A stretch of DNA of 64,000 nucleotides, from the NCBI RefSeq assembly GCF_902498785.1, contig NZ_LR701494.1, positions 496,001 through 560,000 of the forward strand, given 5' to 3'. Positions 6,458 through 52,230 of the stretch are shown here, one piece after another. The notes beneath the pieces are model-generated. The model had not been told where the DNA came from. It worked only from the letters and a program-made list of their open reading frames with translations, and did no database searches. A program made the translations under genes and the position numbers. Source of the DNA: Sphingomonas sp. EC-HK361 (GTDB taxonomy: Bacteria; Pseudomonadota; Alphaproteobacteria; Sphingomonadales; Sphingomonadaceae). Position 1 is the stretch's first letter. Every line of letters begins with the position of its first letter.

Positions 6458-6486
6458 GGTATAGAACATATGGAGAACACAGTAAA
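6458..6486 (-). promoter_or_regulatory. Repressor promoter with SOS-type operator
   Basis: On the minus strand a -35 TTTACT (6486-6481) and a -10 TATACC (6463-6458) are separated by 17 nt. That spacer contains GAAC-N7-GAAC (6464-6478 on the plus strand), the layout of alphaproteobacterial LexA boxes. The box also lies 22 nt upstream of the divergent gene at 6501, so one operator can control both directions. Confidence 0.75.
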
Positions 6487-6500
6487 GCGAGTCGGTATCG

Positions 6501-6683
6501 ATGGACGGAGATCTCCTGCCCCGCGTCGAGGCGTTCCTGATCCGGGTCGGCATCAGCGCGACCCGATTTGGACGCATCGTGGTGCATGATCCCCGCTTCG
6601 TGTTCGATCTGCGCGCCGGTCGCCGACCGCGTCGCCTCGTCCATGCCCGCGTCGCTGCGTACCTGGTCGAGCATGGGGCCTGA
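6501..6683 (+). CDS. Small conserved protein divergent from the repressor, possible DNA-binding
   Basis: A 60-residue basic protein (RVEAFLIRVGISATRFGRIVVHDPRFVFDLRAGRRPR). I recognise the pattern, a helix, then TRFG, then DPRFVxDLRxGR, as a small alphaproteobacterial family resembling a minimal HTH regulator. It sits in the lambda cro position relative to the S24 repressor, sharing the SOS-type operator. A Cro-like antagonist role is inference. Loose spacing of the start and its small size keep confidence moderate. Confidence 0.62.
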   Translation: MDGDLLPRVEAFLIRVGISATRFGRIVVHDPRFVFDLRAGRRPRRLVHARVAAYLVEHGA

Positions 6684-6706
6684 TCGCTGCCGCTGAGCGC
6701 AGTCCA

Positions 6707-7336
6707 TCAGCGGGCCCCCATGCGCCACATCGCCAAGACTTTCCGGACGTAGCCGGGTGTCTCCGCATTTCCAGGAATGCCGCCGGCACGGACCACGGCC
6801 CCCGGGCCTGCATTATAGGCTGCAAGCGCGAGCGCGACCGATCCGAAGCGATCAAGCATGGCCCGGAGGAAGCGGGCGCCACCGTCGACATTGGCGCGCG
6901 GATCGAACGGGTCGAAGACGCCAAGCGCGTGCGCCGTCGCCGGCATCAGCTGCGCGAGGCCCATCGCACCTGCCCGACTGACGATGTCCGGGCGATAGGC
7001 AGACTCCACCGCCACTAGCGCGTCGAGCAGCCCTTCAGGCAGCGCGTGCCGAAGCTCCGCCGCCCGAACGAACGTCAGAAATTTCTCACGACCAGCCGGG
7101 CGTGCAAAGCCTCCTCGGGAAAGCATCGGCTGGGGCACGCTTCGCGGCTCGCCACTAGGCGGAGCGAGGCCGGATTGCTCTGGAAGAACCGAAGCGGGTG
7201 CCGAGGTGCCGATCCGATGCTCGACGAGACTGAAACTCGCGGAGATCAGTGCCTCGTCATGGGTTTGCGCCACAGCCGGACAGGACTGGCTGGCAACCGC
7301 CACGGTCGCCGCCAGGAGAAGGGATCGGATCATCAT
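6707..7336 (-). CDS. Lytic transglycosylase (VirB1-like)
   Basis: A 209-residue SLT-type murein hydrolase that opens peptidoglycan for assembly of the conjugation channel. The N-terminus MMIRSLLLAATVAVASQSCPAVAQ is a signal peptide. The catalytic domain (about residues 100-205) has the glutamate in LVAVESAYRP, the GAMGLAQLMP motif and AYNAGPGAV. ATG 7336 was chosen because it gives the signal peptide. It lies away from the tra operon but has its own strong promoter overlapped by an SOS-type box, so it is likely induced with transfer. Confidence 0.9.
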   Translation of the reverse strand: MMIRSLLLAATVAVASQSCPAVAQTHDEALISASFSLVEHRIGTSAPASVLPEQSGLAPPSGEPRSVPQPMLSRGGFARPAGREKFLTFVRAAELRHALPEGLLDALVAVESAYRPDIVSRAGAMGLAQLMPATAHALGVFDPFDPRANVDGGARFLRAMLDRFGSVALALAAYNAGPGAVVRAGGIPGNAETPGYVRKVLAMWRMGAR

Positions 7337-7373
7337 CGTCTCGCAACATGCAATTACCCTCTTCCTCGAATCG

Positions 7374-7404
7374 GAACATAGTGCGAACACACTCGTGTAG
7401 GAAA
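7374..7404 (-). promoter_or_regulatory. Transglycosylase promoter (TTTCCTACA type) overlapped by GAAC-N7-GAAC
   Basis: The minus strand carries TTTCCTACA (7404-7396) with -35 TTTCCT, an 18-nt spacer and -10 TATGTT (7380-7375), 39 nt upstream of the transglycosylase ATG. GAAC at 7374-7377 and 7385-7388, 7 nt apart, covers the -10. The shared stretch GAACATA...GAACACA matches the repressor operator at 6464 beyond the core. Confidence 0.72.
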
Positions 7405-7432
7405 GCGCCGCGGCCGGAGAGGACAGGCAGCG

Positions 7433-8368: not shown

Positions 8369-8413
8369 TGCCCGGGTGACGGCGATCGAGCCGGCCGGGG
8401 CGGAGATCCCGTC

Positions 8414-13378: not shown

Positions 13379-13390
13379 GCGCCTGACGAG

Positions 13391-19034: not shown

Positions 19035-19487
19035 ATGTCACTCCTGCTCCTCGCTGCCGCTTCGATGGTTGTGCCCTCCGGGGAGCGTTTCACCTGCACC
19101 CCGGTCGCGGTCTGGGACGGCGATGGTCCGATCTGGTGCCGGGAGGGACCCCGCATCCGGCTGGCGGGGATCGCCGCACGCGAGATCGACGGCAGCTGCC
19201 GACCAGGTCATCCCTGTCCCCGTGCCTCGGGCCGCGAAGCGCGCGATCACCTCGTCGCCCTGCTGGGTGGAGCGCGCGGCACGCTGCGGACCGGCCATGT
19301 TATCGTGCGCGGTCCGGTGCTCAGCTGCCGCTCGAATGGCTCTGCCCGCGGCTCCCGGACGGGCGCTTTCTGCCGCTCCGGCTCGACGGGTGACCTTTCC
19401 TGCGCGATGGTCCGGGGCGGCTACGCTCTGTCGTGGTCACGCTACGATGGCAGGCTGGTCTGCCGATCGGCCCCAGGCTCGTCCTGA
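19035..19487 (+). CDS. Thermonuclease-like (SNase fold) secreted protein
   Basis: A 150-residue protein with a short hydrophobic N-terminus (MSLLLLAAASMVVPSG) that may be a signal peptide. The SNase-like pattern is visible: GDGPIWC, RIRLAGIAAREIDG, then a cysteine-rich middle and SCAMVRGGYALSWSRYDG. SNase-family proteins on conjugative elements are usually exported nucleases. Some SNase catalytic arginines are not obvious, so activity is uncertain. Confidence 0.75.
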   Translation: MSLLLLAAASMVVPSGERFTCTPVAVWDGDGPIWCREGPRIRLAGIAAREIDGSCRPGHPCPRASGREARDHLVALLGGARGTLRTGHVIVRGPVLSCRSNGSARGSRTGAFCRSGSTGDLSCAMVRGGYALSWSRYDGRLVCRSAPGSS

Positions 19488-20726: not shown

Positions 20727-20756
20727 TTCTTCGCGCAGCGGCGTGGCTGTAGGAAA
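20727..20756 (-). promoter_or_regulatory. TTTCCTACA-type promoter of the 20688 gene
   Basis: The minus strand carries TTTCCTACA at 20756-20748, preceded by the same GCGC that occurs at the copy upstream of the transglycosylase gene. At 18-nt spacing the -10 is GAAGAA, which is poor, so the element is called from the box and its position. Confidence 0.5.
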
Positions 20757-21700: not shown

Positions 21701-21730
21701 TTTCCTACACCCCGTCTGTCGCGCTACATC
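21701..21730 (+). promoter_or_regulatory. TTTCCTACA-type promoter of the traD operon
   Basis: TTTCCT at 21701-21706, an 18-nt spacer, then TACATC at 21725-21730, 52 nt upstream of the first gene of the mobilisation operon. Confidence 0.6.
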
Positions 21731-31293: not shown

Positions 31294-31336
31294 GGCAAAA
31301 CCTCTTGTCTCGCCCCGTCATCGTCGGCGTCCAAGC

Positions 31337-36660: not shown

Positions 36661-36678
36661 CTAGTCTGATCCCAAAGC

Positions 36679-38220: not shown

Positions 38221-39028
38221 TGCCGGCCTTTCGCTGGGTAAGGAGGAAGATGCGCTCCATCAGCTCGTCGGCAGCGATGATGCCGTAGCCGATGGGAATG
38301 GCGGTCTGGGTCGCGCTGTCGAACAGGACCACGGCGGGCGTGACCCTGGCGGTAAGGCCCATTCGTGTCCGCTGGTTGGTCTCGACCGTGTAGCGCGGAA
38401 AGGTCTCGGACGGCCCGCCGTCCGTCGAGATCGCACGAACCGTCAGGTGGTGGGTGTCAGCAACCGCCTTCACGATCGGCGACATGACACGGCACGAGCC
38501 GCAGCTCTGGGCGAAGAAGTAGAACAGCCCGTAGCGTGCCCCAAGCCGATCAAGCGCCTGGTCGCGTTCGACCTTGCGCGCATCGGTCCACTGCTGCTTG
38601 GCGACCGTCCCGACCGGCCGCTGAAGCGTGTAGTCGAGGTCAGGTGCCTGCCAGAGCGACCGCTGCCACACGTCGCCGAACAGTGACGCGCGATCGAGCT
38701 GGGCGCGCTGGAAGCGGATATAGGCGGTGACATTGTCTGGCGTCGGCTCGAGGATCGCTCGCGCCTTGAGCTCGCGCAGTTCGGCCGTGACCGCGTCCAG
38801 CTGCTCTGCCGCCGACTTCGCCGGCGGTGGTGGCGGGACGGTCGCCGGTTCCTCGTCTCGTGGACGCTCGCAGTAGAACCAGGTGCCGAGTTTGCGATCC
38901 TGGCAGTAGAAGCGGTCACCCGCCTGGATCGTCTGACGGTCGGCCGGCGGCTGGGCCTGCGCCGGCGCCAGCATGAGTGCAGTCGCGACGAGCGCGACGA
39001 TGCGCGTAAGCATGACGACCGGCCTCAT
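38210..39028 (-). CDS. traF: Pilus assembly protein TraF (thioredoxin-like)
   Basis: A 272-residue periplasmic protein. Signal peptide ends at APAQAQ; a YCQDRKLGTWFYC pair follows, a proline-rich linker (PPPPP), and a C-terminal thioredoxin fold. The active-site-like motif is QSCGSCRVM, so unlike many TraF homologues it keeps a CxxC. It helps fold or assemble disulfide-rich pilus proteins such as TraN, TraU and TraH. The start overlaps the traN stop by 4 nt; an internal Met five codons later is an alternative. Confidence 0.92.
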   Translation of the reverse strand: MRPVVMLTRIVALVATALMLAPAQAQPPADRQTIQAGDRFYCQDRKLGTWFYCERPRDEEPATVPPPPPAKSAAEQLDAVTAELRELKARAILEPTPDNVTAYIRFQRAQLDRASLFGDVWQRSLWQAPDLDYTLQRPVGTVAKQQWTDARKVERDQALDRLGARYGLFYFFAQSCGSCRVMSPIVKAVADTHHLTVRAISTDGGPSETFPRYTVETNQRTRMGLTARVTPAVVLFDSATQTAIPIGYGIIAADELMERIFLLTQRKAGSDY

Positions 39029-40770: not shown

Positions 40771-41522
40771 CGTCGGTCTCCCAGGCGCGTACGATAGACA
40801 GCGGACACGCGCGCAGTGGCGCCGCCGCCGTCTGCGAAGGCGTCGAGCGCATAGTCAAGGCTGACATTGCCGGACATGCGGTCATGCGGCGGCAGCGCCG
40901 TGCGGCAGTCGAACCCATCGCACAGGTCGAAGTCGGTGGCGGTCACGACATATGCCGGCACCGCCTCGATGCCGAAGGCGCGGAACAGACGCGGGTCGAT
41001 CCCGACGGCCGCTTTGACCTCGCCCTGCGGCAGCACCTTCGCGAGAGCGGTCGTGAAGGTGCGCGCCGAGTTGCCCGGCATGCCCCGGAACACGACGACG
41101 CCCCCGGCGCGCCCGACATCCGTGATCATCGCCTTGAGCGATGCCGGCGGCATGGAGAGGCTGGCGAAGGCGACGAGCCGCGGCGCGTCCTCCGGCGCCA
41201 TCGGCCCGGCGGTCGCCGCGACCATGGTATCGAAGTCGAAGGTCGCCGTCGGATCGCCGGGACCCGCCTTCCTCGCATAGCGCGCCGACGCCGCGCGCGC
41301 GGTGGCGGCGCTCGCCGTCGCTTCCTGCCGCAGCGCCTCGCCGCGGCGCGCCACAACCTTGGTCAGCGCCTCGGCGTCCTGCGGCGACAGCTTTGCGCGG
41401 GCACGCACTCTGGCAAGGTCGAGCCCCTCGACGGTCTGCGCCGCCGATCCCGCACCCAGACCGAGGAGCAGGCCGACCAGCGCGGCGCTGCCGATAGTTA
41501 GGGAAACACGGCGCCGCATCAC
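40767..41522 (-). CDS. trbC: Pilus assembly protein TrbC (F-type)
   Basis: A 251-residue periplasmic protein with signal peptide (GSAALVGLLLGLGAGSAAQT). The F-type TrbC domain: LVAFASLSMPPASLKAMITDVGRAGGVVVFRGMPG, then VGIDPRLFRAFGIEAVPAYVV. The fold is thioredoxin-like without CxxC. It pairs with TraW in pilus assembly. Overlaps of 4 nt with both traU and traN. Confidence 0.92.
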   Translation of the reverse strand: MMRRRVSLTIGSAALVGLLLGLGAGSAAQTVEGLDLARVRARAKLSPQDAEALTKVVARRGEALRQEATASAATARAASARYARKAGPGDPTATFDFDTMVAATAGPMAPEDAPRLVAFASLSMPPASLKAMITDVGRAGGVVVFRGMPGNSARTFTTALAKVLPQGEVKAAVGIDPRLFRAFGIEAVPAYVVTATDFDLCDGFDCRTALPPHDRMSGNVSLDYALDAFADGGGATARVSAVYRTRLGDRR

Positions 41523-42607
41523 AGCACGCAGCAGTTGCGTTTGCGCCAGACGAGATAGCCCATATCTTCTCCGATCGCGGGATAGACTTGGCCGGCCGAC
41601 ATGAAGGTGGTCGACGCGCCGATCGGCGCGCAGGCGTAGCGCCCGCCGGTCTGGGGATTGGGGTTGGTGGCTTGGAAGCGGTATTGCTGCTTACGCATCA
41701 CCGGCATCAGGTAGCTGCCGCACAGGCCCTTGCTGCCCATCGTGCCCCAGGCGACGAGCTCGCGGTGGAGCTTGTAGGCGAAGCGGGCAAGCGCGAGCCG
41801 TGAGGCCTGCACATGGCCGATCGACGCGCCAATGTTGCCGTTGAGCGGATACATCGTGCCCTGGCAGCCCGCGCACCAGAAGAGCGGGTCGGTCGGCAGC
41901 CTGGCGCTCGCGGCGACGCAGTCGGCCGCGCAGGCGGCGAGTGCCAGCGGGTTGGCGAACAGCACCGCCTCCGGGTTGATCAGCGCGGTGAGCTCGGAAT
42001 CCTGCCAGAGCGGATCGACCTCGGTGATGTAGAGGATGTCGATCGATCCCTGCTCAAGGCAGAGGAAGTCGGCGACGATTTCCATCCAGTACAGCAACGG
42101 ATAGGCGTACCAGTGGACGTGCCAGCCGCTGGTGTTCTGCGCCTTGCCGCCGATCGCGCTCGGCCCGGCGATGGTCTTGAAGCCAATGTCGAACCCGGGA
42201 TCGAGCTTGAGGCCGCCCAGGTTCACGAAGCACCACGGCTTCATGCTGACGTCGGCTAGCCGCACCGGCTCCCAGAAGCCCATGGCGATGCCGACACGCA
42301 GGCCGCACGCACAGACCGGCAGCGCTGGATTGTCGGTGTCGGGGCGACCGGCGAGCGAAGGCCAGATGTTGAGCCCGCCGACCGACATCGGAAACATGCA
42401 GCTCCAGCAGACGTCAGTGATCGGATTGACGAAGCGACCCGTGCACCGCCCCGGCGTCCCCTCTGCTCTTGCCGGCGAGGCGAGTACGAAGCTGACGATC
42501 AGCACGAGTGCGGCGAGGCCCGCCAGCAGCCAGCGGACGCGCCGGCGCACGATCAGGCGGCGCCGGGCGGACGCGGCAAACCACTCGCGATTGCTCACCG
42601 CGCTCAC
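41519..42607 (-). CDS. traU: Conjugative transfer protein TraU
   Basis: A 362-residue cysteine-rich exported protein. The signal/anchor (WLLAGLAALVLIVSFVLASPARA) is preceded by an Arg-rich cytoplasmic start. TraU-typical blocks: CTGRFVNPITDVCWSCMFPMSVGG, then WCAGCQGTMYPLNG and ending RKRNCCVL. It is required for DNA transfer more than pilus growth in F. Somewhat longer than F TraU (330). Overlaps traW and trbC by 4 nt. Confidence 0.93.
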   Translation of the reverse strand: MSAVSNREWFAASARRRLIVRRRVRWLLAGLAALVLIVSFVLASPARAEGTPGRCTGRFVNPITDVCWSCMFPMSVGGLNIWPSLAGRPDTDNPALPVCACGLRVGIAMGFWEPVRLADVSMKPWCFVNLGGLKLDPGFDIGFKTIAGPSAIGGKAQNTSGWHVHWYAYPLLYWMEIVADFLCLEQGSIDILYITEVDPLWQDSELTALINPEAVLFANPLALAACAADCVAASARLPTDPLFWCAGCQGTMYPLNGNIGASIGHVQASRLALARFAYKLHRELVAWGTMGSKGLCGSYLMPVMRKQQYRFQATNPNPQTGGRYACAPIGASTTFMSAGQVYPAIGEDMGYLVWRKRNCCVL

Positions 42608-43245
42608 TTGCGATCTCCTTTTGTTCCCCGAATCACCAGTTCGCGGATGGCGAGCGTGCGCCCCTGCTGCTCGACGAGCGCCGGCACGGCATGGATGCCG
42701 AAGTGGCGGGTGAGCGTGCCCTGCTGGTCGAAGTAGAAGCGGCGCTGCTCGGCCTTCATCAGCGCGAAGGGCGATCCGCCAACGAGGATGAGCTTGGCGT
42801 TGAGCGCCGTCGTCGTGCTGCGCGCCCAGGCGACCTGCGCCGGATCGTCGCCATCGAGGAACACCAGCCGCTGGCGGAGCGGCACCGTGTCGAGCGGGTT
42901 CACGCGCGTACCGGCAGCCACCACGATGCGGCCCCGTCCGTCGCGCAGATCCTCGCGCACGGTGATTGTCGGATCGAAGGTCCAGCGCCGCTCCTCGGTC
43001 GCTGGGGCGATCCCGGGCACGGGTGCCGGGCGGCGCACCCGCGCGGCGGTGCGCTCGGCCAGCTGCCGGTTCGCGCGATCAATCGCACCGCTCGCCTGCA
43101 TTGTCGTCAGCCGCTGCTGGATCACCGAAAGCAGGTCCGCCTCGATGACCGGGAAGACCGCGCCCTGCTGGCCATAGTCGTGCGCCGCCGCCGGAGCGGC
43201 GAGGAGCAGGGCTGCGAGCCCGAGCGGGACAAGCCGCGTGCTCAC
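42604..43245 (-). CDS. traW: Pilus assembly protein TraW
   Basis: A 213-residue exported protein, close to F TraW (210). Signal peptide LGLAALLLAAPAAAHDYG; the conserved blocks are GAVFPVIEADLLSVIQ, NPLDTVPLRQRLVFLDGDDP and QGTLTRHFGIHAVPALVEQ. It works with TrbC in the periplasm. Overlaps the S26 peptidase and traU genes by 4 nt. Confidence 0.92.
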   Translation of the reverse strand: MSTRLVPLGLAALLLAAPAAAHDYGQQGAVFPVIEADLLSVIQQRLTTMQASGAIDRANRQLAERTAARVRRPAPVPGIAPATEERRWTFDPTITVREDLRDGRGRIVVAAGTRVNPLDTVPLRQRLVFLDGDDPAQVAWARSTTTALNAKLILVGGSPFALMKAEQRRFYFDQQGTLTRHFGIHAVPALVEQQGRTLAIRELVIRGTKGDRK

Positions 43246-43778
43246 AGGATCGCCTTTCCGACACCGATCAACTGGCGACCGCAGACCCAGCCGATCAGTG
43301 CATAGCGGCTGTCGAAGCTGTCCTTGTTGGGCGTGCCGACGAAGTAGCAGCCGCGCGGCACGATTCCGGTCGGCCCGAGCGCCAGCGGCTCGCCGCGCAG
43401 CGTTTGCTCCTTGGCGAGCGCCACCGCCCGGCCGTTGACGAGGAACAGCCGTCCCCGACGCGTCACCTTGTCACCGGCGATGCCGTAGACGACCTTGCCG
43501 AACGGCGGATGATCGCGCCCAAAGTGACGCTCGAGCAGCCGGCTCGCCGGTGGATCGAAGAAGATCGTGTCGCCACGTGCGGGCAGACGATGGCGCTCGA
43601 CCAGAAACGCCCAGCTGGGCAGGCTGGTGCTCTGGTTGACCAGAAAGACGTGCCCGTCGCTCCAACTGGCCAAGCTGGCATAGGCGCTGGCCGCGGCCGC
43701 GACCGCCAGCATCACGCCCCAGCGCTGGCGGCGAACGGGCGACCAGAAGCGCCGGTCGATGGATTCAGCGGCGGTCAT
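43242..43778 (-). CDS. S26-family signal peptidase (conjugative TraF/TrhF type)
   Basis: A 178-residue membrane-anchored serine peptidase. One N-terminal span (MLAVAAAASAYASLASW); the nucleophile serine is in NQSTSLPSWAFLVER and the lysine in VYGIAGDKVTRRGR. F itself lacks this gene, but F-like systems of the SXT, IncA/C and IncH groups carry it, where it processes pilin. ATG 43778 overlaps the trbI stop by 14 nt; a longer upstream frame is a shadow. Confidence 0.9.
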   Translation of the reverse strand: MTAAESIDRRFWSPVRRQRWGVMLAVAAAASAYASLASWSDGHVFLVNQSTSLPSWAFLVERHRLPARGDTIFFDPPASRLLERHFGRDHPPFGKVVYGIAGDKVTRRGRLFLVNGRAVALAKEQTLRGEPLALGPTGIVPRGCYFVGTPNKDSFDSRYALIGWVCGRQLIGVGKAIL

Positions 43779-44163
43779 GCTCGGCCTCCATCGCGCGGGC
43801 GACCCGCGCCCGAACGTCAGCGGTGCGGTCGTCGACGGAGCGCCCAAGGGTTGCTTCGGACACGAGGACGGTCGTGCCGCCCTGCCCGAATTCCGCGACC
43901 GCCTTGTTGACGGCCGCGAGATAGCTCGCCGTGCGGCTTGCGGACTGTTCGGGCGTGCCGCCGTTGCGGGCCTCGGCAGCGACGAAGTCCTCGACCAGCC
44001 GCGAGAGGCTGACCGACACGATCCGGCGCTGCTGGAGCTCGACCACCGTCCGCGTCGTCCACGCCGCCCAGACGAGCGCGGCAGTGAGCAGGACGGCGGC
44101 TATTACGCGCGCGACCGGCCAGCCCGCGATCGTGCGGTGCTTGCGGACAGCGGGCTCAGCCAT
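43765..44163 (-). CDS. trbI: Conjugative transfer protein TrbI (F-type)
   Basis: A 132-residue inner-membrane protein, about the F TrbI length (128). One span (VIAAVLLTAALVWAAW) is followed by a periplasmic helical domain with VSVSLSRLVEDFVAAEAR. It affects pilus retraction in F. Overlaps its neighbours by 8 and 14 nt. Confidence 0.88.
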   Translation of the reverse strand: MAEPAVRKHRTIAGWPVARVIAAVLLTAALVWAAWTTRTVVELQQRRIVSVSLSRLVEDFVAAEARNGGTPEQSASRTASYLAAVNKAVAEFGQGGTTVLVSEATLGRSVDDRTADVRARVARAMEAEHDRR

Positions 44164-44515
44164 TTTGGCCTCCGCGCGCCAGATCGCGCCGCAGCTTGCC
44201 GACGAAGGACGGCAGCCGAGCGATGACGAGGAGGCCGACCAGGCCGAGGATTAGCGCCAGCACCTGCCGATCGAAGTGCGCGCGCGCCAGCGGATCGGCG
44301 AACAGATAATGGGTCGAGAGGTTCTGGAGGTGCGCGAAGAAGCGTAGCGGTCGCCCGTCTGCGGCGACGACCAGGAAGGCGAGCACCATCCCGAGCGCGG
44401 CCAGCAGGGTGCCGGCGAGCCAGAGGCTGACGCTCAGGCCGACATGGCAAATGTCGGACGCGATGCGGCCGGCGCGCGCGAGCCGCGCTCGCAAAGTGGG
44501 TCGGGGATCAGCCAT
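44156..44515 (-). CDS. Small inner-membrane protein of the tra operon
   Basis: A 119-residue protein with two membrane spans (SVSLWLAGTLLAALGMVLAFLVV and VLALILGLVGLLVIARL). No F counterpart recognised. It lies between traC and trbI with 8-nt overlaps, so it is likely co-translated and inserted with the T4SS inner-membrane complex. ATG 44515 is chosen because it overlaps the traC stop; the longer frame is a shadow. Confidence 0.75.
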   Translation of the reverse strand: MADPRPTLRARLARAGRIASDICHVGLSVSLWLAGTLLAALGMVLAFLVVAADGRPLRFFAHLQNLSTHYLFADPLARAHFDRQVLALILGLVGLLVIARLPSFVGKLRRDLARGGQNG

Positions 44516-47081
44516 TGCGGCGCTCCGGATGGGTGGGATCGACCTCGCCGCGCGCGACGGCGTCGATCGCTTCGGCGATCGGCTCGCCGGCCGCGACCCG
44601 TGCCTCGATGGCGGCATAGGTGTCGGGCGAGGAGGAGAAGACGGTCGCGGAGAAGCGGTCGAGCACCAGCCGGCCGATCGCCTGGCACTCCGGGCCGCGG
44701 ATGAAGACCTCCGAATATTCGCTGCCCGATCGCTTCAGCGAGCGGATCAGCCCTTCGGTGCGGTCGTCCATGTCGAGCCGGGCGGACTTGCGCAGATCGG
44801 CGATCGTCTCCGGCTTCTGCTGGAGCACCAGCATCCAGTCGGAGTTCTCGAGCGCGGCGGTGGCGCCATCCGACTTGTAAAAGTCGTTGAGCGACTGCGT
44901 CGCGGTGCAGAGCGCCCCACCATATTTGCGGGCGGTACGGGCATAGGTCTCGACGAAGTCGGACATCGACCCGCCCTTGAGCATCGCCCAGGCCTCGTCG
45001 ATCAGCAGCAGCTTCTTCACCGAGCGGGGTGAGCGCGTCATCGCCTGGCCGGTCATGAACATGATCGCGGTGAGCACAACCGAGCGCAGCTCCTCGCGGG
45101 TCGCGAGGTCCGACATCTCGAAGACTGTGAAGTCGGCCTCGAGCCGGAGCGTCGCCTCGCCATTGAAGAACCCGCCATAGGTGCCGCCCGCGCGGAACGG
45201 GCCCATGGCGATGGCGAGATTGGCAGCGTCGGCATTGCCGGTGCCTTCGAGCGCAAGCGCAACCGCCTCGACCGATCCTGCCCTGCCCTGCTCTTCCCAG
45301 ACTCGGTTGACCGCCTGGTCGATCAGGCCGCGCTCGGTGTCGGTCAGCCGGTCAATGAAGCGCGCCATCTGGCCGACGATCGACTTGAGCATCGCCATGC
45401 AGTCGAGACGATAATCCTCGTCCTCGACGACCCGTCCGGCGTCGATCATCGAGAAGGGATTGAGGCAGAAGCCGCTCGCCAGGGTGAACTCGATGAAGCG
45501 CCCGCCCTGCAGACGGCAGCTGTTCATGAAGGAGCGACCGTCATCGATGACGACGACCTTGGCGCCCGCGCCGCACAGGCTCGCGCACATCTCCTGCAGC
45601 AGCACCGACTTGCCCGAGCCTGATTTGCCGAGAATCGCGACATTGTGGTTGCCGGCGCCATTCTCGAACGGCGACCAGAAGAAGGGCTGACCGCGCCGAC
45701 CGAGGAACAGCAGGTGCGGCACGGCGCCGCCGAGATATTCACCCTGGACAGGTGCGATGTTCGCCGCCGTGGTCGACAGCATCGTCCGCATGCGCCGGCA
45801 GCGTTCGAGGTCTGCGGCGAGCCCGTCGGCGAGGGTCAGCGGCATCGCCGCGAGCAGGCCCTGCACCTGGAGGAAGCGCTCGTCGGCGAGGTCCCAGCCG
45901 GCCGACTTGTAGAGCGACTTGACCATGCGCTCGTTCCGGTCGCCGTCGCCCGCCGGCGAGAAGGTCGTCACGCCGTAGAAGGCGCGGACCAGCCGCCGGC
46001 CTTCCTGGAGCTGCGCCTGGACCTCGCGCCACTCGGCTGCCTGTTCACGGAGCTTGGGCACGTAGCGCGCGGACTTGCCTTCGGAGAGGCTGGTCGTGCG
46101 CAGGAACTTCATGCCTGCGCGCGTCGAGGCGGCCTCCTGGTCGGGATAGACGAGGCAGAGCATCGTCGCCGCGGGGCACGGGTAGCGGAGCTTGTCGGTG
46201 AACAGGTCGCCGATCAGCCGCGCGGTCTCCCACGGCGTCCAGCGCACCGGCATGTTGCGGACGCCGAAATGCCGGACGTCGAAGCTGTCGGGATAGATCT
46301 CGCCGATCTCGGGCGCCTCGCCGTCGTGCCCGCCGGTCGGACGAAAGCGCTCGGTCCGGAGCAGCATTCGGCTTTCCTCGACGGTGAGCTCTATATCGCG
46401 GCGGATCGCCTGATCGGCGATCGGGTCGAGCGGGTTGTAGTCGATGGCATCGTCTCCGCTCGCGGTGGTCGGCGAAGTCAGGTCGTCGAGGAAGGCGATG
46501 AGCTCGACTGGGTCGACGTCGAGTGCCGGCACGTCGAGCGAGCGCAGCACGCCGACGAGGCTCTCGCGCACCGCCACCAGCTCTTCCTTGGACGTGCTGC
46601 CGTTCGCGGGCACGCCGACCGACACGAGCAGCTGGTGATGACGCGCGTGGAAGGGCGCACCGCTGGAACCGCTGCTCCAGACGAGGTCGTAGAGGCACTG
46701 GGTGCGCGCCCGCGCGATCTGCTCGTACACGCCGCCACGGGCGTAGCGCGGCGCGAACCAGGGCGCGATGTTGCGGCTGATCCGTGGAGACGCCCAGTGG
46801 ACGATCTGCACGCAGGCGCCCGCCGGCAGCCCTTCGGACAGGAATTGGCCGAGCAGGTCGCCGACCCGCTCGTCGGCGCCGACGAGGGGTGCGACGTTGA
46901 GGATGAAGCCGGACGAGCGCGCGTTGAGGTAGAGCTTGGTCGAGGGCTCGTAGACCCGGTACGGCAGGAAGCTCGACAGCATGTCGAGGCCCAGCACCGG
47001 ACGCTCGCCCTCGCTCTCCTCGGCATCGCCGAACAGTCCGGTCATGAGCGATCCGGTGAGCGTCTTCAGCGACAGGCTCAT
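44508..47081 (-). CDS. traC: T4SS ATPase TraC (VirB4 family)
   Basis: An 857-residue cytoplasmic ATPase that powers pilus assembly (F TraC: 875). The N-terminal F-type TraC domain includes LGLDMLSSFLPYRVYEPSTK. Walker A is GKSGSGKS at residues 485-492; Walker B is KLLLIDEAWAML in the C-terminal third, followed by the TATQSLNDFY sensor block. Overlaps traV by 4 nt. Confidence 0.95.
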   Translation of the reverse strand: MSLSLKTLTGSLMTGLFGDAEESEGERPVLGLDMLSSFLPYRVYEPSTKLYLNARSSGFILNVAPLVGADERVGDLLGQFLSEGLPAGACVQIVHWASPRISRNIAPWFAPRYARGGVYEQIARARTQCLYDLVWSSGSSGAPFHARHHQLLVSVGVPANGSTSKEELVAVRESLVGVLRSLDVPALDVDPVELIAFLDDLTSPTTASGDDAIDYNPLDPIADQAIRRDIELTVEESRMLLRTERFRPTGGHDGEAPEIGEIYPDSFDVRHFGVRNMPVRWTPWETARLIGDLFTDKLRYPCPAATMLCLVYPDQEAASTRAGMKFLRTTSLSEGKSARYVPKLREQAAEWREVQAQLQEGRRLVRAFYGVTTFSPAGDGDRNERMVKSLYKSAGWDLADERFLQVQGLLAAMPLTLADGLAADLERCRRMRTMLSTTAANIAPVQGEYLGGAVPHLLFLGRRGQPFFWSPFENGAGNHNVAILGKSGSGKSVLLQEMCASLCGAGAKVVVIDDGRSFMNSCRLQGGRFIEFTLASGFCLNPFSMIDAGRVVEDEDYRLDCMAMLKSIVGQMARFIDRLTDTERGLIDQAVNRVWEEQGRAGSVEAVALALEGTGNADAANLAIAMGPFRAGGTYGGFFNGEATLRLEADFTVFEMSDLATREELRSVVLTAIMFMTGQAMTRSPRSVKKLLLIDEAWAMLKGGSMSDFVETYARTARKYGGALCTATQSLNDFYKSDGATAALENSDWMLVLQQKPETIADLRKSARLDMDDRTEGLIRSLKRSGSEYSEVFIRGPECQAIGRLVLDRFSATVFSSSPDTYAAIEARVAAGEPIAEAIDAVARGEVDPTHPERRNG

Positions 47082-47905
47082 CGCGGCTGCTCCTGCCCTG
47101 CGGGCGCGCTGAACGGGCTCGCATCACCTTCGGCTGGTGATGTGCCCTGGTCTGACCGCTTGCCCAGCCGCGCCAGATCGGGGGTGGCCAGCGTCTTGAG
47201 CCGCGCCCGCGCGGCCGCCGCGTCACCTTGCGGGAGCACGACCTTTCCAGGCGGCAGGGACGGTCGCACGGTCTTGTTCGGTTCAGCGGAAGCGGCTGAC
47301 GCAGGCGTTGCGTTTCCGGTGCCGCTGCCGATCCGGTGCCCGGCGCGCGCGGCCGCTAGCGATGCCGCGGTCGGCGCGCCGGGATCGACCGCGCGGGGCA
47401 ACGCGGCCGAACTGAAAGGTTGAGGGGCTTGAGCGGGAGGAGTCTCAAGCCCCTCGATCACCGGTGCCGAAGCACCGGCGATCGCCTCGCGCAGGGAGGA
47501 AGGGGCGGGACTGCGCGAGATCTCGGAATGCGAAGTCGGGTCGGTGGCCGCGGTGAAGGTCCAGCCAGGCTGCTCGACTACGGCATGGACGGTGGCCGCA
47601 TCGTGCAGCACGCCGGTCTCATCGACATGCGCGGGCAGCAGGATGGAGAGCATACGCTCGCCCGTCCGGACAGCGACGCTGCCGCCACGACCCGTCCGCG
47701 GCGGGTGCCGATCGGGCCCTACTGCAGGATCGGCCCCGTCCTCGGCGACTTGGCCGATTGCGGCCGCATCGATCCTGGTCATCGGCGCGCAGGTGCCGGC
47801 CGGCGCACGGCAGGTGAAGTCGCCCTTCACCGTGCCGCCGAGCGTCGTGCAGCCACCGAGCGCCGACGCGCCGGCGAGCAGGAGCGGGAGAATGGCGCGG
47901 TTCAT
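47078..47905 (-). CDS. traV: Outer-membrane lipoprotein TraV
   Basis: A 275-residue lipoprotein: signal peptide MNRAILPLLLAGASALGGC with lipobox cysteine at residue 19, then the TraV core GTVKGDFTCRAPAGTCAPM with two cysteines. It is much longer than F TraV (171): residues 120-275 are Ala/Pro-rich and low-complexity. With TraK and TraB it forms the outer-membrane core complex. The start overlaps dsbC by 4 nt. Confidence 0.88.
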   Translation of the reverse strand: MNRAILPLLLAGASALGGCTTLGGTVKGDFTCRAPAGTCAPMTRIDAAAIGQVAEDGADPAVGPDRHPPRTGRGGSVAVRTGERMLSILLPAHVDETGVLHDAATVHAVVEQPGWTFTAATDPTSHSEISRSPAPSSLREAIAGASAPVIEGLETPPAQAPQPFSSAALPRAVDPGAPTAASLAAARAGHRIGSGTGNATPASAASAEPNKTVRPSLPPGKVVLPQGDAAAARARLKTLATPDLARLGKRSDQGTSPAEGDASPFSAPAGQEQPR

Positions 47906-48783
47906 GCCCGGCCTCCCACGACGAAGGCCTTGAGCTGCTCGGCGGTGTGGAAGCCCTGCAGCACCGCACCATCGGCGCGGATGATTACCGGCGTGCCGCC
48001 GAACCCGTGCTTGCGGGCGAACGCCTCGTTCGCGTCGAGCCCCGACACGTCGCAGGTCTCGCCCGGCGCCACCGGCTGGCCGGCATAAGCGGCATGCGCC
48101 GCGGCGGCGGGATCGGGCGCGCAGAGCACCGCCTCGGCGAGCTTGCGGCTCTCCACGCCAAAGATCGAGATCGGGCGCTCCTCGACACGCGCACCCATGC
48201 GGGCGAGCTCGGCGGCGAGCTTGCGGCAGTAGCCACAATGAAAGTCGCTGAGGACGACGAGCCTGGGTCCGTTCGCCGGGCCCCAATGGATTGCGCTACT
48301 GGCGGGCAGGCTGGCGAGGTCGACCTTGGCAGCCGCCGGCGTCGCCGCGGCAGGCTTCGCCTCCTCGTCATCGCGCCGGCCCGCAGCGCCAGCGGCGAGC
48401 AAATCCGGGTTGAGCTCGAGCAGCCGCGTCGCGGTCAGGTCGCTGCGCGCCTCCATGTCGTAGAGCCGCCCAATCATCAGGTAGCGCGCGCTTCGGTCGA
48501 CGTAGAAGAGCGTGGTGCCGGCGACGACTTCGCACAGCCCGCCGAAGCGACCGCAGTCGATCGCCCCGATGCGGGTCTTCGGCAGGCGCAACTTGAGCGC
48601 CGCGCGGACCAGTGTGGTGTCCACGCCGGCCATCGCTGGGGCGGCATGGACAGACTTGGCGACCAGCCCTGCCCCCATGCCGAGCGCGAGCGACGCGGAG
48701 GCGATCAGGCTCCAGAACGGCGCGCCTTCCATGCGGCGCATCCTGGCCAGCTCGCGGCCAAGACGAGTGTCGGACGAATTCAT
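47902..48783 (-). CDS. dsbC: DsbC-like thiol:disulfide isomerase of the tra operon
   Basis: A 293-residue periplasmic protein. An N-terminal anchor (LIASASLALGMGAGLVA), a dimerisation-like domain to about residue 110, an Ala-rich linker, and a thioredoxin domain with SDFHCGYCRKL and the cis-proline in GFGGTPVII. It would isomerise disulfides in TraN, TraU and TraH. Position between traB and traV is as in other F-like systems. Overlaps both by 4 nt. Confidence 0.9.
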   Translation of the reverse strand: MNSSDTRLGRELARMRRMEGAPFWSLIASASLALGMGAGLVAKSVHAAPAMAGVDTTLVRAALKLRLPKTRIGAIDCGRFGGLCEVVAGTTLFYVDRSARYLMIGRLYDMEARSDLTATRLLELNPDLLAAGAAGRRDDEEAKPAAATPAAAKVDLASLPASSAIHWGPANGPRLVVLSDFHCGYCRKLAAELARMGARVEERPISIFGVESRKLAEAVLCAPDPAAAAHAAYAGQPVAPGETCDVSGLDANEAFARKHGFGGTPVIIRADGAVLQGFHTAEQLKAFVVGGRA

Positions 48784-50102
48784 TGGGAGTTCCTCACATA
48801 AACGCCGTCGAGGAAGACGATTTCGACATCGATGCCGGTCGGCATCTCCACGACTGGCTGATATTGTTCGGCGCGCTCGATCAGATATTTGGACACCGTG
48901 TCCGAGGCGTCAGCGACGCCCTGACCGAGACCGCCCTGGACGATGTCGCCGCCCGAAAGCTGCTGGCGCTTGCCGTCGACTCCGGTCGTGATCCCGGAGA
49001 AGAGGCTGTTCGAGTTGGCGGAGAAGCCACGCCCGAAGCCGCCGACGATGCCCGCGAGCAGCGCCTGGCTGACGAGACTGCCCTCGCGGCTGACGACCCG
49101 GCCGCGCACGCCGGTCTTGCCGGCGAAGCTGATGAAGCCCTTCACCTCGCTGACGGCGACCCGCCCACCGGGCTGGTCGCACGTCATCTTCTGGAGCTTG
49201 ACGTAGACCTTCTCGGCCGAGAGATCGCCGCGCGCCGCGCCATTGACGACGCAGCCCTGGATGCGCGTGGTCAGCAGCTTGCCGTCCTTGACGACCGAGC
49301 GCGCCGGCCCCGTGATCCGCAGCACGACCGGCAGCGGGTCGGTCTGGCTCGAGACGCCCGCCGAAGCGTCGACACCGACGATGACGCGAGCCGGCGCATA
49401 GCTGTTGGGCGGCAGATACTCGGGGCTGTCCTCGATCTCGATCGCCGGCGCACTCGGACGGCCAGCTCTGAGGCCGGTCTTCGCCGTTGCACCAGCTTCC
49501 GACGTGCCGCTCGAGAACGAGACGGTCTTTACCTGTCGCTCGGCCGGCGGCGGCAGCGCCGGGCCCTGCGCCGCAGCCATGTTCGGGTCGAGCGGCGACC
49601 CCGACGGGATCGACGGATCACGCACGGCCACCGGCGGCGGGGCAGCCGCTCGCGTCTGCGCGCGGGTCAGCTCGCCACGTAGCGTGCTGTTCTCCTGCGT
49701 CAGCGCATCGATCGTCTTGGTGCCGTCTGTCTTGAGCGCCTGGTTCTCGGCCGCGAGCGCGTCGAGCCTGGCCTGCACCTCGGGCGCGACCGCCTTGCTC
49801 TCTTCGAGCGCCTTCAGTTGCCGCGCCTGAGCATTGAGCCGATTGCCGTAGATCGCGACGAACTCCTTCTGGCTGAGGTCGCGATTGACGATGCCGTCGG
49901 TCTCGATCTTCTGCGGCGCGTCCGCGGCCGGCGTGTGATCGCCGGTGCCGCCGACCACGAACCAGAGCGCGAGCATCGCCGCCGAGCCGCCACCGCCGAG
50001 CAGCAGCATGCGCTGGCGTGCGCGCGTCTTGGCGTTGAGTGCGCCCAAAGCCGTGACGCTCTCCTGCGCCGGGTTGGACGGAGGGGTGGCCTGCTCGCTC
50101 AT
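48780..50102 (-). CDS. traB: T4SS core protein TraB (VirB10 family)
   Basis: A 440-residue inner-membrane-to-outer-membrane scaffold protein. One span (MLLLGGGGSAAMLALWFVVG, about 33-52), a coiled-coil region (about 75-150), a linker, and a C-terminal VirB10-like beta domain (YAPARVIVGVDASAGVSS, GCVVNGAARGDLSAEKVYVKL, RVVSREGSLVSQALLAGIVGGFG). Overlaps traK and dsbC by 4 nt. Confidence 0.94.
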   Translation of the reverse strand: MSEQATPPSNPAQESVTALGALNAKTRARQRMLLLGGGGSAAMLALWFVVGGTGDHTPAADAPQKIETDGIVNRDLSQKEFVAIYGNRLNAQARQLKALEESKAVAPEVQARLDALAAENQALKTDGTKTIDALTQENSTLRGELTRAQTRAAAPPPVAVRDPSIPSGSPLDPNMAAAQGPALPPPAERQVKTVSFSSGTSEAGATAKTGLRAGRPSAPAIEIEDSPEYLPPNSYAPARVIVGVDASAGVSSQTDPLPVVLRITGPARSVVKDGKLLTTRIQGCVVNGAARGDLSAEKVYVKLQKMTCDQPGGRVAVSEVKGFISFAGKTGVRGRVVSREGSLVSQALLAGIVGGFGRGFSANSNSLFSGITTGVDGKRQQLSGGDIVQGGLGQGVADASDTVSKYLIERAEQYQPVVEMPTGIDVEIVFLDGVYVRNSQ

Positions 50103-50911
50103 GCGCCGGCACTCCCGTCGAGCACGACGTAGAGCGTGGTTGCCTGCTGCGCGCCGAGCTCGCGATCGGCGACGCTCACTGAGAGACTACCGGCGGGGGT
50201 GAGCTGTGCCGGATCGATGGTAACGGGCTTGGCGCCGCGATTGTCGATCCGCAGCACACGGCCCGTGAGCGCGGCACCACGATACTCGGCGACGAGGCGT
50301 ACGGTGAGGTCACCGACCCGGGTCGGGGCGGCGGCGACCTGCCGCATCGTATAGCCATCCGGCGCACGGTTCGCGGCCATGGCCTGGATCAGGCGCACCG
50401 CGGCATCGCGGGGTCCGGCCTTCGCTTCCCAGGCCTGCGCTCGCTCGCCGGCGATCGCCGGGTTCGAGACGAAGATCTGCTCGGCGTCGGGTCCGCCGAC
50501 GCTACAGGCGAACTTGTAGACATAGCCCTTGCGGGTCGTGGCGAAGAAGCTCAGCCGCCCCGGCGCGAAGCCTTCGGGCACCGACAGGTAAATGTCGCCC
50601 CGGACCGGCTCGTTGGTGACGGTGAAGTCGTTGAACGGGTACCCGGTCGTGATCTTGCTGACGCTGGCGAAGGCATCGCCGACCAGGCTGATCCGCGTCA
50701 GCTCATGGTTCGAGACGACGCAATCGACCTGCGCATTATCGACGGCCTGCCGATACTGGTCGGCCCACGCCGGAGTGGCGGCGAGCGCGATGGCAGCGCC
50801 GATCAGTGCCATGCCGAGCGGCTTCAGGCTGATGTCGCGCGGTCGGGATGTGCCGGTCGCAAAGGTGGCGGCGCCGGCCCCGAGCAGGCAGGCGGGTGTC
50901 GCGGCGATCAT
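50099..50911 (-). CDS. traK: T4SS core protein TraK
   Basis: A 270-residue exported protein of the VirB9-like/TraK family. The start at 50911 overlaps the traE stop as ATGA; an internal Met (50812) would give the cleaner signal peptide MALIGAAIALAATPAWA, so the true start is debatable. The core has CVVSNHELTRISLVGDAF, then GYPFNDFTVTNEPVRGDIY. It binds TraV and TraB in the outer-membrane complex. Confidence 0.9.
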   Translation of the reverse strand: MIAATPACLLGAGAATFATGTSRPRDISLKPLGMALIGAAIALAATPAWADQYRQAVDNAQVDCVVSNHELTRISLVGDAFASVSKITTGYPFNDFTVTNEPVRGDIYLSVPEGFAPGRLSFFATTRKGYVYKFACSVGGPDAEQIFVSNPAIAGERAQAWEAKAGPRDAAVRLIQAMAANRAPDGYTMRQVAAAPTRVGDLTVRLVAEYRGAALTGRVLRIDNRGAKPVTIDPAQLTPAGSLSVSVADRELGAQQATTLYVVLDGSAGA

Positions 50912-51474
50912 TGGAGCGCCTCCTTGTGATCTTGGGTGAGCGCGAAGCTCGAGAGCGAGAGGCGCAGGCCGACGTAGGTCCAGCCGAACCGGAACCGCTT
51001 CTTCTCGCTGGCGATGACCTGGCCGCCGACGAAGGTCTTGAGATCGCCCTCGACGGTGGAGCTCAGGCCCTTTGGATCGACGGTCATGCCGGTGATCACG
51101 AAGGCCTGGGCGAGGTCGGAGCCGCGCTGCTCGGTGACGATTTTGACGAGCTCGGCCTTGAGCGCCCCATAGGCAGACGGGTCCGCCACCTTCAGGATCT
51201 GCTCCATCCAATAGTCGAGCCCGGTCGGCGACCTGTTGAGCAGCATCAGCGCGACGTCGCGCGTAACCAGCTCGAGATAGTCGGCCGACACGCCCGACGA
51301 GCTGATCGCCAGCGGCCGCGTCGTGACCGGCTGCAGGATCACTTCGCGGTCGCGGCTGCTGAGCGCCGTCAGCAGTGCGAGGTTCGCCAGGAACGACGCG
51401 GCAGCCGCGACGACCAGGACCTTGCGCTGGCGAAGCAGCGACTGGCTGCGCTGATGCGCGATATCGGATAGCAT
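50908..51474 (-). CDS. traE: T4SS protein TraE (VirB5/8-like)
   Basis: A 188-residue inner-membrane protein, the same length as F TraE. One span (VLVVAAAASFLANLALLTALS) is followed by a periplasmic domain with SADYLELVTRDVALMLLNRSP and GWTYVGLRLSLSSF. ATG 51474 was chosen for this standard N-terminus; GGGGAGGGG lies upstream. It is 13 nt after traL. Confidence 0.93.
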   Translation of the reverse strand: MLSDIAHQRSQSLLRQRKVLVVAAAASFLANLALLTALSSRDREVILQPVTTRPLAISSSGVSADYLELVTRDVALMLLNRSPTGLDYWMEQILKVADPSAYGALKAELVKIVTEQRGSDLAQAFVITGMTVDPKGLSSTVEGDLKTFVGGQVIASEKKRFRFGWTYVGLRLSLSSFALTQDHKEALQ

Positions 51475-51487
51475 GGAGCCCCTCCCC

Positions 51488-51775
51488 TCAGCCGGCGAGC
51501 CGGCGGCAGTGGGAGGGCGGCGTGGCGCGAAGCCTGACGAAGCTTGCCCCCAGGTACCAATAGGCCGCGTGGATGATCCAGGAACTGGCCCGGCCAGCCT
51601 TGGCCTTGCGAAGCGCGAACCACGCTCCTCCGGCACCCACGAGACCCAGCAGGATGTGCTGGGAGAAGATGCCCCAGGCGAACGGCGCCGCGAGCCCCAA
51701 GAATTCGTCCAGGGTCCAAAGGCCGATGAGCTCCGGATCGTCGAGCCGCCGGGGGACAAGGTACTTGTCAGTCAT
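51488..51775 (-). CDS. traL: T4SS protein TraL
   Basis: A 95-residue protein (F TraL: 91) with one or two hydrophobic segments (LAAPFAWGIFSQHILLGLVG). The N-terminus KYLVPRRLDDPELIGLWTLDE is diagnostic of TraL. It belongs to the inner-membrane pilus assembly complex. It lies between traA and traE. Confidence 0.93.
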   Translation of the reverse strand: MTDKYLVPRRLDDPELIGLWTLDEFLGLAAPFAWGIFSQHILLGLVGAGGAWFALRKAKAGRASSWIIHAAYWYLGASFVRLRATPPSHCRRLAG

Positions 51776-51803
51776 GTGCGCTACGCCGCCCTCGCCGCCG
51801 CGA

Positions 51804-52127
51804 TCAGATGATCGCGGTCACGGTGGAGGTGACGATCGGCACGCCCGTGCCGACGCCGATGCCGACGGCGACGGGGATCGCCACCTGCCCGAGCGTGAAC
51901 CGGCCGGACGCCATGCCGATGATGCCGCCGGCCAGGCTGAGCACGGCGATGATCTTGCCGCCTGAGCCCTCCAGAAAGTCGGTGAACTTGGTGAGCGCCG
52001 GCCCGAAGGTCGTGTCGGCGCCGGCATAGGCCGCGCTCGCCACGGCCATGAGGCCGATCGCCGGGATGAGATAGTCGCTGGCCCGGCCGAGGCCGGCACG
52101 GGTCAGCGGGAGCTTCAGGCTGTGCAT
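51804..52127 (-). CDS. traA: Conjugative pilin TraA
   Basis: A 107-residue propilin with a long leader (YLIPAIGLMAVASAAYAGAD; cleavage probably after AYA), a short acidic-to-basic segment, and two hydrophobic helices (KIIAVLSLAGGIIGMA and VAIPVAVGIGVGTGVPIV). This is the VirB2/TraA pattern. It is the first gene of the tra operon. ATG 52127 gives the expected leader; a longer frame upstream overlaps the SOS-type box and is unlikely. Confidence 0.88.
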   Translation of the reverse strand: MHSLKLPLTRAGLGRASDYLIPAIGLMAVASAAYAGADTTFGPALTKFTDFLEGSGGKIIAVLSLAGGIIGMASGRFTLGQVAIPVAVGIGVGTGVPIVTSTVTAII

Positions 52128-52215
52128 CGAGAGCGTCTCCGAAGGTGTTCGCCGCGGCCGCATCCCGACCGCACAATCACCTTCACGCCGGCTCGGGCCG
52201 CCGCTCAACGAAAAG

Positions 52216-52230
52216 GAACACGACGAGAAC
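52216..52230. promoter_or_regulatory. SOS-type operator (GAAC-N7-GAAC) upstream of traA
   Basis: GAAC at 52216-52219 and 52227-52230 are 7 nt apart, 89 nt upstream of the traA ATG, inside the 400-nt divergent region (52128-52527). The -35/-10 of the tra promoter could not be assigned with confidence. The box matches those at 6464 and 7374. Confidence 0.65.

What the first reader, a model, noticed from the sequence alone, without database searches (positions are those of the whole stretch)
6458..52230. Three GAAC-N7-GAAC boxes tie the S24 repressor, the transglycosylase and the tra operon together
Seen: boxes at 6464-6478 (between the -35 and -10 of the repressor gene and facing a divergent gene), 7374-7388 (over the -10 of the transglycosylase) and 52216-52230 (89 nt before traA). 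The first two also share GAACATA and GAACACA. A fourth, imperfect box (GTTC-N7-GTTT) is at 52456-52470. Established: GTTC-N7-GTTC is the alphaproteobacterial LexA operator, and S24 repressors self-cleave with RecA. Inferred: DNA damage induces transfer of this element, like SetR in SXT but with the host LexA code or a repressor that has adopted it.
Basis: partly seen in the sequence, partly recalled or inferred. Interest (0 to 1): 0.82.

Follow-up and report, generated by a model that had tools for sequence, protein, structure and literature searches.

The report
DNA-damage switch of a conjugative element
A mobile DNA element of Sphingomonas bacteria seems wired so that DNA damage, sensed by both the host's and the element's own repressor, switches on its excision and transfer genes; the wiring is conserved between species but has not been tested at the bench.

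Summary
Their number is close to chance (4 exact in the window, 1.33 expected; the fourth is inside a gene), but their position is strongly conserved: in diverged relatives of the element the eight half-site bases never change while much of the flanks does. The motif also precedes lexA, recA, imuA, recN and other repair genes in related hosts, so it is best read as the host LexA box. In three relatives seen whole the element is an ICE in tRNA-Arg(ACG); its integrase gene carries the same box.

A second motif, TAGGAAA (8 copies, 0.62 expected), marks the three box promoters and four further ones; its palindromic form sits at S24 genes, also at two without a LexA box, so it is probably the repressor's own operator. 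The divergent gene encodes a Cro-like helix-turn-helix protein, kept beside S24 in 78 of 80 relatives.

Best reading: a CI/Cro-like switch plus host LexA form a double SOS lock on integrase, transglycosylase/primase and tra genes, like SetR in SXT combined with LexA-RstR in CTXphi. Binding, cleavage and induction are untested.

The parts
6464..6478 (-). GTTC-N7-GTTC, LexA-type box between the divergent S24 and Cro-like genes
   Evidence: exact; present within 220 nt upstream of S24 in 77 of 80 relatives; 8/8 half-site bases invariant in 11 element copies
6429..6442 (-). TAGGAAATACCCTA, putative S24 operator next to the S24 start codon
   Evidence: TAGGA-N3..5-TCCT[AT] in 67 of 68 S24/Cro-like intergenic regions of the more distant relatives
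5776..6429 (-). S24 (CI/LexA-like) repressor; start ATG at 6429 or 6426; Ala91-Gly92, Ser133, Lys171
   Evidence: Pfam PF00717, PHROG_4 transcriptional repressor, residues invariant in 28 of 28, fold match to LexA, lambda CI and 186 repressor
6501..6683 (+). 60-aa Cro-like helix-turn-helix protein, divergent from S24
7374..7388 (-). GTTC-N7-GTTC box between the divergent transglycosylase and primase genes
   Evidence: exact; present in 10 of 11 close relatives, L009 lacks the region; 8/8 half-site bases invariant
7398..7404 (+). TAGGAAA, putative S24/Cro half-operator, transglycosylase/primase promoter
6707..7336 (-). lytic transglycosylase (SLT domain)
   Evidence: Pfam PF01464
7433..8368 (+). 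Toprim/DUF7146 primase-like protein, first gene of the rightward cluster
   Evidence: Pfam PF23639, PF13362
18999..19005 (-). TAGGAAA before a gene (19035-19487 +) taken by eye as nuclease-like
   Evidence: present in 3 of 10 copies; the other 7 have upstream sequence that does not align and lack it
20750..20756 (+). TAGGAAA before a small leftward gene (20419-20688 -)
   Evidence: conserved in 10 of 10 copies
21701..21707 (-). TAGGAAA before a small gene, traD (22014-24371) and the TrwC-type relaxase (24381-27302)
   Evidence: conserved in 7 of 10 copies; the 3 without it have a diverged (34% identical) small gene
52216..52230 (-). GTTC-N7-GTTC box, -103 to -89 from the traA start codon
   Evidence: exact; same place in 8 of 11 TraA loci of related genomes plus the window; the 3 less similar TraA loci lack it
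52286..52292 (-). TAGGAAA upstream of traA
   Evidence: TAGGAA[AG] kept in 9 of 9 copies
51804..52127 (-). traA pilin-like gene, first of the leftward F-type tra cluster that runs to traG at 33835
   Evidence: both TraA family matches below their curated cut-offs
52450..52475 (+).
   Evidence: kept in 9 of 9 copies
52528..53013 (+). Xre-type helix-turn-helix gene divergent from traA
   Evidence: Pfam PF01381; relatives in 7 of 9 genomes

Best explanation
[quoted passage not shown] Lock one is the host SOS repressor LexA, bound to GTTC-N7-GTTC at the S24/Cro-like switch, the transglycosylase/primase promoter, the tra operon and, in relatives where that end of the element is visible, the integrase promoter. 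Lock two is the element's own CI-like S24 repressor, bound to TAGGA-type operators at the switch, transglycosylase/primase and tra promoters and at the traD/relaxase promoter and others. RecA filaments on damaged DNA would trigger self-cleavage of both repressors, so integrase, relaxosome and pilus genes open together; the divergent Cro-like protein would then hold the S24 promoter down, and the box at the S24 gene would let returning LexA help reset the switch. Shown: motifs, conservation, the host SOS code, conserved cleavage residues, ICE ends in relatives. Inferred: who binds what, cleavage, direction of control at each promoter, induction of transfer.
Against: Motif counts are weak: 4 against 1.33 in the window, no excess with one mismatch, and 5 against 2.5 in the S. 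jatrophae ICE, 13 of 100 simulations reaching 5. Two related (51% identical) integrases in two other genomes have no box; whether they belong to these elements was not settled. In 6 of 9 genomes the tRNA repeats were not seen on both sides of the element. L009 lacks the box and the partner gene; three of four plasmid-borne S24 relatives examined lack both exact motifs, and one of them (L197) also lacks the Ala-Gly and the Lys. Most ICE TAGGAAA sites are single half-sites rather than palindromes. TAGGA-N4-TCCTA is no more frequent than its reversed control in the 4 genomes; only its location is informative. No sigma-70 promoter was recognised. No binding, cleavage, expression or transfer data exist here, and in E. 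coli IncI1 and IncFII plasmids SOS level did not correlate with conjugation frequency (PMC12211044, abstract).
Confidence: 0.72

Rival explanations
1. The S24 repressor itself recognises GTTC-N7-GTTC, having adopted the LexA code, and host LexA is not needed.
For: The box accompanies the S24 gene in 77 of 80 relatives and is absent from the related promoters examined on plasmids without S24.
Against: Two S24 genes without a GTTC box at the promoter still carry TAGGA palindromes; the box precedes lexA, recA and repair genes; the S24 N-terminus matches CI/Cro-type helix-turn-helix domains such as P22 c2 and 434 Cro, while the LexA matches cover its C-terminal half.
Confidence: 0.1
2. LexA binds the boxes, but TAGGA is read by the Xre-type or Cro-like protein or is a promoter element, and S24 is not cleaved; SOS control is through LexA alone.
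For: Single TAGGAAA half-sites are unusual for a dimeric repressor; promoter elements here are unknown; some phage repressors are released without cleavage (Gifsy, PMC3121763, passages).
Against: TAGGA palindromes occur at S24 promoters of distant relatives; cleavage residues are invariant in 28 of 28.
Confidence: 0.15
3. The boxes work, but SOS induction serves repair or stabilisation of the element (SSB, primase, partition genes), with little effect on transfer frequency.
For: LexA-regulated plasmid genes without significant effect on conjugation are reported for IncI1 (PMC12211044, abstract and one section); the primase cluster is one of the targets.
Against: The traA box is kept in 9 of 9 copies and the integrase box in 5 of 5 tRNA-Arg integrases, one with a mismatch.
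Confidence: 0.2
4. The boxes are chance matches.
For: Counts near expectation.
Against: Invariant half-sites against 29-43% invariant background at three separate promoters.
Confidence: 0.03

Closest known systems
SXT/R391 ICEs with SetR (PMC4542580, PMC4344509: passages seen)
   Same: CI-like S24 repressor with HTH and LexA-like C-terminus; operators between divergent genes, a Cro-like repressor among the products of the opposing transcript; RecA-dependent self-cleavage as trigger.
   Different: In SXT, SetR controls setCD, whose products activate the transfer operons; here LexA-type boxes and TAGGA sites lie at the operons themselves. SXT sits in prfC (strain list in PMC4344509), the three relatives seen whole here in tRNA-Arg. 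No SetCD-like activator was seen among 46 window ORFs scanned with Pfam.
CTXphi prophage: phage repressor RstR plus host LexA (PMC3323433, PMC3121763: passages seen)
   Same: Host LexA acts together with the element's own repressor, and LexA also regulates the repressor gene.
   Different: CTXphi is a filamentous phage. The S24 repressor here looks self-cleavable; whether RstR is cleavable was not checked. Here the code extends to tra and integrase promoters far from the switch.
Alphaproteobacterial LexA regulon, GTTCN7GTTC (PMC12700426: passages, on Caulobacter)
   Same: Identical half-sites and spacing; same motif before lexA, recA, imuA and repair genes of related hosts.
   Different: Targets here are transfer, integration and switch genes of a mobile element.
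LexA boxes of the IncI1 plasmid pTF2 (PMC12211044: abstract and one section)
   Same: LexA boxes on a conjugative element, three predicted at tra genes.
   Different: There the tra boxes were weak and judged unlikely to act; here half-sites are exact and conserved between species.

Membership tests
Alphaproteobacterial LexA box | GTTC-N7-GTTC direct repeat | tested here: met
Alphaproteobacterial LexA box | Same motif upstream of lexA and recA in closely related hosts | tested here: met
   lexA 10/10, recA 9/9 genomes; the window's own genome is not held
Alphaproteobacterial LexA box | Bound by LexA and derepressed by DNA damage | not testable with these tools
   needs gel shift and expression data
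CI-like self-cleaving S24 repressor | N-terminal HTH plus C-terminal S24 domain | tested here: met
   S24 by Pfam, PHROG_4 over residues 13-214, both domains by fold
CI-like self-cleaving S24 repressor | Ala-Gly scissile bond, catalytic Ser and Lys | tested here: met
   A91-G92, S133, K171 invariant in 28 of 28; of four plasmid-borne relatives added, one (L197) lacks A, G and K
CI-like self-cleaving S24 repressor | RecA-stimulated cleavage | not testable with these tools
   biochemistry needed
Divergent CI/Cro switch | Small HTH protein divergent from the repressor with operators between | tested here: inconclusive
ICE | Relaxase, coupling protein and type IV secretion genes | tested here: met
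   TraD, TrwC-type relaxase, TraG, H, F, N, TrbC, U, C by Pfam and a TraA-like gene; the remaining tra ORFs were not scanned
ICE | Integrase and att repeats at a tRNA gene | tested here: met
   in relatives G001, G002, G003 of nine genomes; the ends lie outside the window
SXT/R391 ICE family | Integration into prfC | tested here: not met
   three relatives sit in tRNA-Arg(ACG); the window's own site is not seen
SXT/R391 ICE family | setC/setD activator genes | tested here: inconclusive
   none among 46 window ORFs scanned with Pfam; not all ORFs scanned

The most novel reading that the evidence does not exclude
A Sphingomonadales-wide CI/Cro-like S24 switch carrying a host LexA box, which in distant relatives seems to stand alone outside any recognised conjugative element, was taken up by an ICE family and extended into an element-wide two-repressor SOS circuit in which LexA and S24 sites together gate every step: excision (integrase), DNA processing (traD/relaxase), wall opening (transglycosylase), replication (primase) and the pilus (traA). 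If so, a second, LexA-subordinate SOS tier of unknown output also exists in the chromosomes of the order.
Probability: 0.45. Interest if true: 0.75.

Novelty: new variant of a known kind. Interest (0 to 1): 0.62.

Why it matters
SOS-triggered transfer is best known through SXT, where the element's own repressor senses damage. Here the host's LexA code is written directly into the transfer and integrase promoters of an ICE family in environmental bacteria, with the element's repressor as a probable second key. That makes the question of who controls conjugation under DNA damage, host or element, testable with two point alleles in one strain, and it predicts that genotoxic stress induces gene transfer among sphingomonads. 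The same switch in many relatives, apparently also outside such elements, points to an uncharacterised branch of the SOS response.

Tried and rejected
Box counting as evidence: exact and one-mismatch counts do not separate signal from chance; conservation was used instead. The fourth exact box (61017) was rejected as coding chance. EcfG (GGAAC-N16-CGTT, recalled) was considered for the box region and dropped by eye because relatives lack the second half. A search of TAGGA-N4-TCCTA in four genomes gave no excess over the reversed pattern (3 sites against 5, one strand counted), so only its location is used. The 51% integrases of two genomes have no box. phmmer with S24 alone found no solved structure at E 0.001; the profile found UmuD', LexA and, weakly, SipA. 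The small protein found no PDB sequence match up to E 1. No paper describing this element, the S24/Cro-like pair or TAGGA operators was noticed in the listings of ten searches of the open library; most subscription papers are not held, and seven papers were opened (passages, or abstract and one section).

Rows dropped before counts: L009 from the 11-copy S24 and transglycosylase sets (window plus ten relatives) because the region is missing; L131-L133 from the traA statistics because they are less similar TraA loci whose promoters do not align (both told above). In one search the 68 'distant' intergenic regions are loci L011-L080 without L027 and without L078, which has no partner gene. In one search two of the 78 partner genes (L021, L073) are cut by contig ends. 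One search covered 50 loci around boxes of the S. jatrophae assembly: the first 30 of 94 matches plus 20 of the others chosen by eye for a LexA-like look, so it is not an unbiased census; its simple ORF caller is crude (it puts even the recA box inside an opposing ORF). Eight flanking proteins were sent to NCBIfam, seven got a family. Control plasmids: 6 of 86 records with a TraA match and 4 of 1098 with a primase match were examined; one search found no S24 relative in these ten records but had no positive control of its own. The four plasmid-borne S24 genes examined are the four best of 86 records. Only 8 of 80 S24 neighbourhoods were read for neighbours.
Full report
Observation. The three boxes are exact at the stated places. 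By number they would not convince: four exact copies against 1.33 expected, and 5 of 100 shuffles reach four; with one mismatch there is no excess (39 against 40.11). The unlisted fourth copy (61017) is inside a DUF4007 ORF.

Conservation. Relatives of the S24 protein were fetched from one genome for each of 84,980 species (best 80 of 245). Eleven (L001-L010, L027; 72-99% identical) share further parts of the window; the assembly of L001 (Sphingomonas jatrophae) is collinear with window 5010-28832 and 34754-53009 at 91-92% DNA identity. Of the 80, 77 have GTTC-N7-GTTC within 220 nt upstream of S24 (not L009, L048, L058). The transglycosylase/primase box is present in 10 of the 11. TraA relatives were found at 11 places in 7 of 9 genomes; the traA box is at the same place in the 8 close ones and in the window, and missing in the 3 less similar ones. 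All eight half-site bases are invariant at each of the three promoters, where 29%, 43% and 41% of other positions are (9, 11 and 11 copies, 9 distinct sequences each). Spacers vary at S24 and traA (2 of 7 and 1 of 7 positions invariant) but hardly at transglycosylase (6 of 7). Sequences of one lineage are not independent, so the p^8 values printed by the script are only indicative.

Whose box is it? In 10 of 10 genomes lexA and in 9 of 9 recA carry the exact motif upstream. In the S. jatrophae assembly there are 94 copies against 44 of the reversed pattern; among 50 loci inspected, boxes lie before imuA, recN, rmuC, parC, pdeM, radA and a repair radical-SAM gene (names from NCBIfam, with the ImuA, RmuC and RecN matches below the curated cut-off; many other boxes lie inside ORFs). 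GTTCN7GTTC is the published Caulobacter LexA motif (PMC12700426, passages). The box is therefore most simply the host LexA box.

A second motif. TAGGAAA occurs 8 times in the window against 0.62 expected, none of 100 shuffles reaching 8: at S24, transglycosylase/primase, a nuclease-like gene, a small gene at 20688, the traD/relaxase genes, traA, the Xre-type gene, and one site at 33865 within the 3' end of traG, in a part that does not align with S. jatrophae. That assembly's element has 7 sites against 1.79 in first-order Markov simulations, maximum 5. Upstream alignments keep the motif in 10 of 10 copies at 20750, 7 of 10 at 21701 (the other three have a diverged small gene), 3 of 10 at 18999 (the other seven have upstream sequence that does not align), and 9 of 9 at traA (as TAGGAA[AG]) and Xre. 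At S24 it is part of a palindrome, TAGGA-N3..5-TCCT[AT], present in 67 of 68 intergenic regions of the more distant relatives, 66 of which also have the GTTC box. In four genomes the pattern TAGGA-N4-TCCTA has three sites, no more than the reversed control, but all three are immediately upstream of S24 genes (62, 54 and 40% identical), and the last two have no GTTC box at the promoter (at L236 the nearest lies about 150 nt inside the partner gene). The two motifs thus come apart: TAGGA follows S24, GTTC the LexA code. Tra promoters of six related plasmids (pNL1 among them) and four primase upstream regions lack both, and no S24 relative was found in those ten plasmids. Among the four best plasmid-borne S24 relatives one has both motifs, three neither.

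Where the switch lives. Seventeen of the 69 more distant relatives lie on contigs over 1 Mb; in L018 it lies among genes that look like housekeeping genes, and in L026, L060 and L067 beside an HNH-like gene (by eye, 8 of 80 loci read). That these copies are outside mobile elements was not tested.

What the element is. A 28-base tRNA-Arg sequence found beside the element in S. jatrophae occurs on both sides of it in three of nine genomes (G001 110.5 kb apart, G002 135 kb, G003 197 kb), with an intact tRNA-Arg(ACG) at one end and a truncated copy beside a tyrosine integrase at the other. In G004 and G005 the integrase and truncated copy are on another contig; in G006-G009 no flanking pair was seen. 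The integrase (92-100% identical in five genomes) has the exact GTTC box upstream in four and a one-mismatch form in the fifth, followed by [TC]AGGGTATC. Two 51% identical integrases in two other genomes lack the box. The window shows no tyrosine integrase among the 46 ORFs scanned with Pfam, so this part is inferred from relatives. The S. jatrophae element holds a further box just before a deaminase-like gene (named by eye).

Mechanism. LexA and S24 would together silence the switch, transglycosylase/primase and tra promoters, and LexA the integrase; RecA filaments would inactivate both. SetR of SXT (PMC4542580, PMC4344509, passages) gives the precedent for the S24 key, LexA with RstR in CTXphi (PMC3323433, PMC3121763, passages) for the double key and for LexA acting on the repressor gene itself; in CTXphi LexA is reported to activate rstR transcription, so the sign at the S24 gene here is open. 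Against over-reading: in E. coli IncI1 and IncFII plasmids SOS level did not track conjugation (PMC12211044, abstract), and the authors of PMC3340321 found no LexA box near three transfer genes of pRAS1 (passage). Steps shown are sequence facts; binding, cleavage and induction are inference.

Verdict. It is a new variant of a known kind.

Noticed in passing
window 61017-61031: A fourth exact GAAC-N7-GAAC, inside the DUF4007 ORF 60896-61819; taken as chance.
   Followed up: yes
window 1-4087; L159/L160 (G001 C5 580951-585035); L027 7183-10648: LysR, SLAC1 and molybdopterin-oxidoreductase genes lie left of S24 in the window, but on the other side and inverted in S. jatrophae; in L027 this part is 99.4% identical to the window while the two neighbouring matches are 71 and 77%, which suggests recent cargo exchange.
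   Followed up: partly
window 6482-6493: GACTCGCTTTAC (minus strand) is invariant in 11 of 11 element copies and holds a GANTC (CcrM-type, recalled) site; role unknown.
   Followed up: no
L026, L060, L067 near 5650-6630: The S24/Cro-like pair sits beside a convergent HNH-nuclease-like gene (by eye) of unknown role in these three loci.
   Followed up: no
L009 4663-5907: In S. solaris an S24 copy is joined directly to part of the Xre-type gene, without Cro-like partner or GTTC box: a rearranged copy.
   Followed up: partly
L197 8001-8642: A plasmid-borne S24 relative (Sphingobium sp. RC1) has lost Ala91, Gly92 and Lys171 and also lacks both promoter motifs and the partner gene, so it may be a non-cleavable relative.
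   Followed up: no
L226, L219, L222, L228, L233, upstream of the integrase: The integrase promoter has a third GTTC at 5-base spacing before the box (GTTC-N5-GTTC-N7-GTT[CT]).
   Followed up: no
window 29405-33292 and 53468-62601: Variable-looking genes, some defence-like by family: Cap4-type nuclease domain, AAA ATPase, HNH nuclease, DUF4007.
   Followed up: no
L235, L236: Further S24 genes with TAGGA palindromes but no LexA box at the promoter in two sphingomonad genomes.
   Followed up: no
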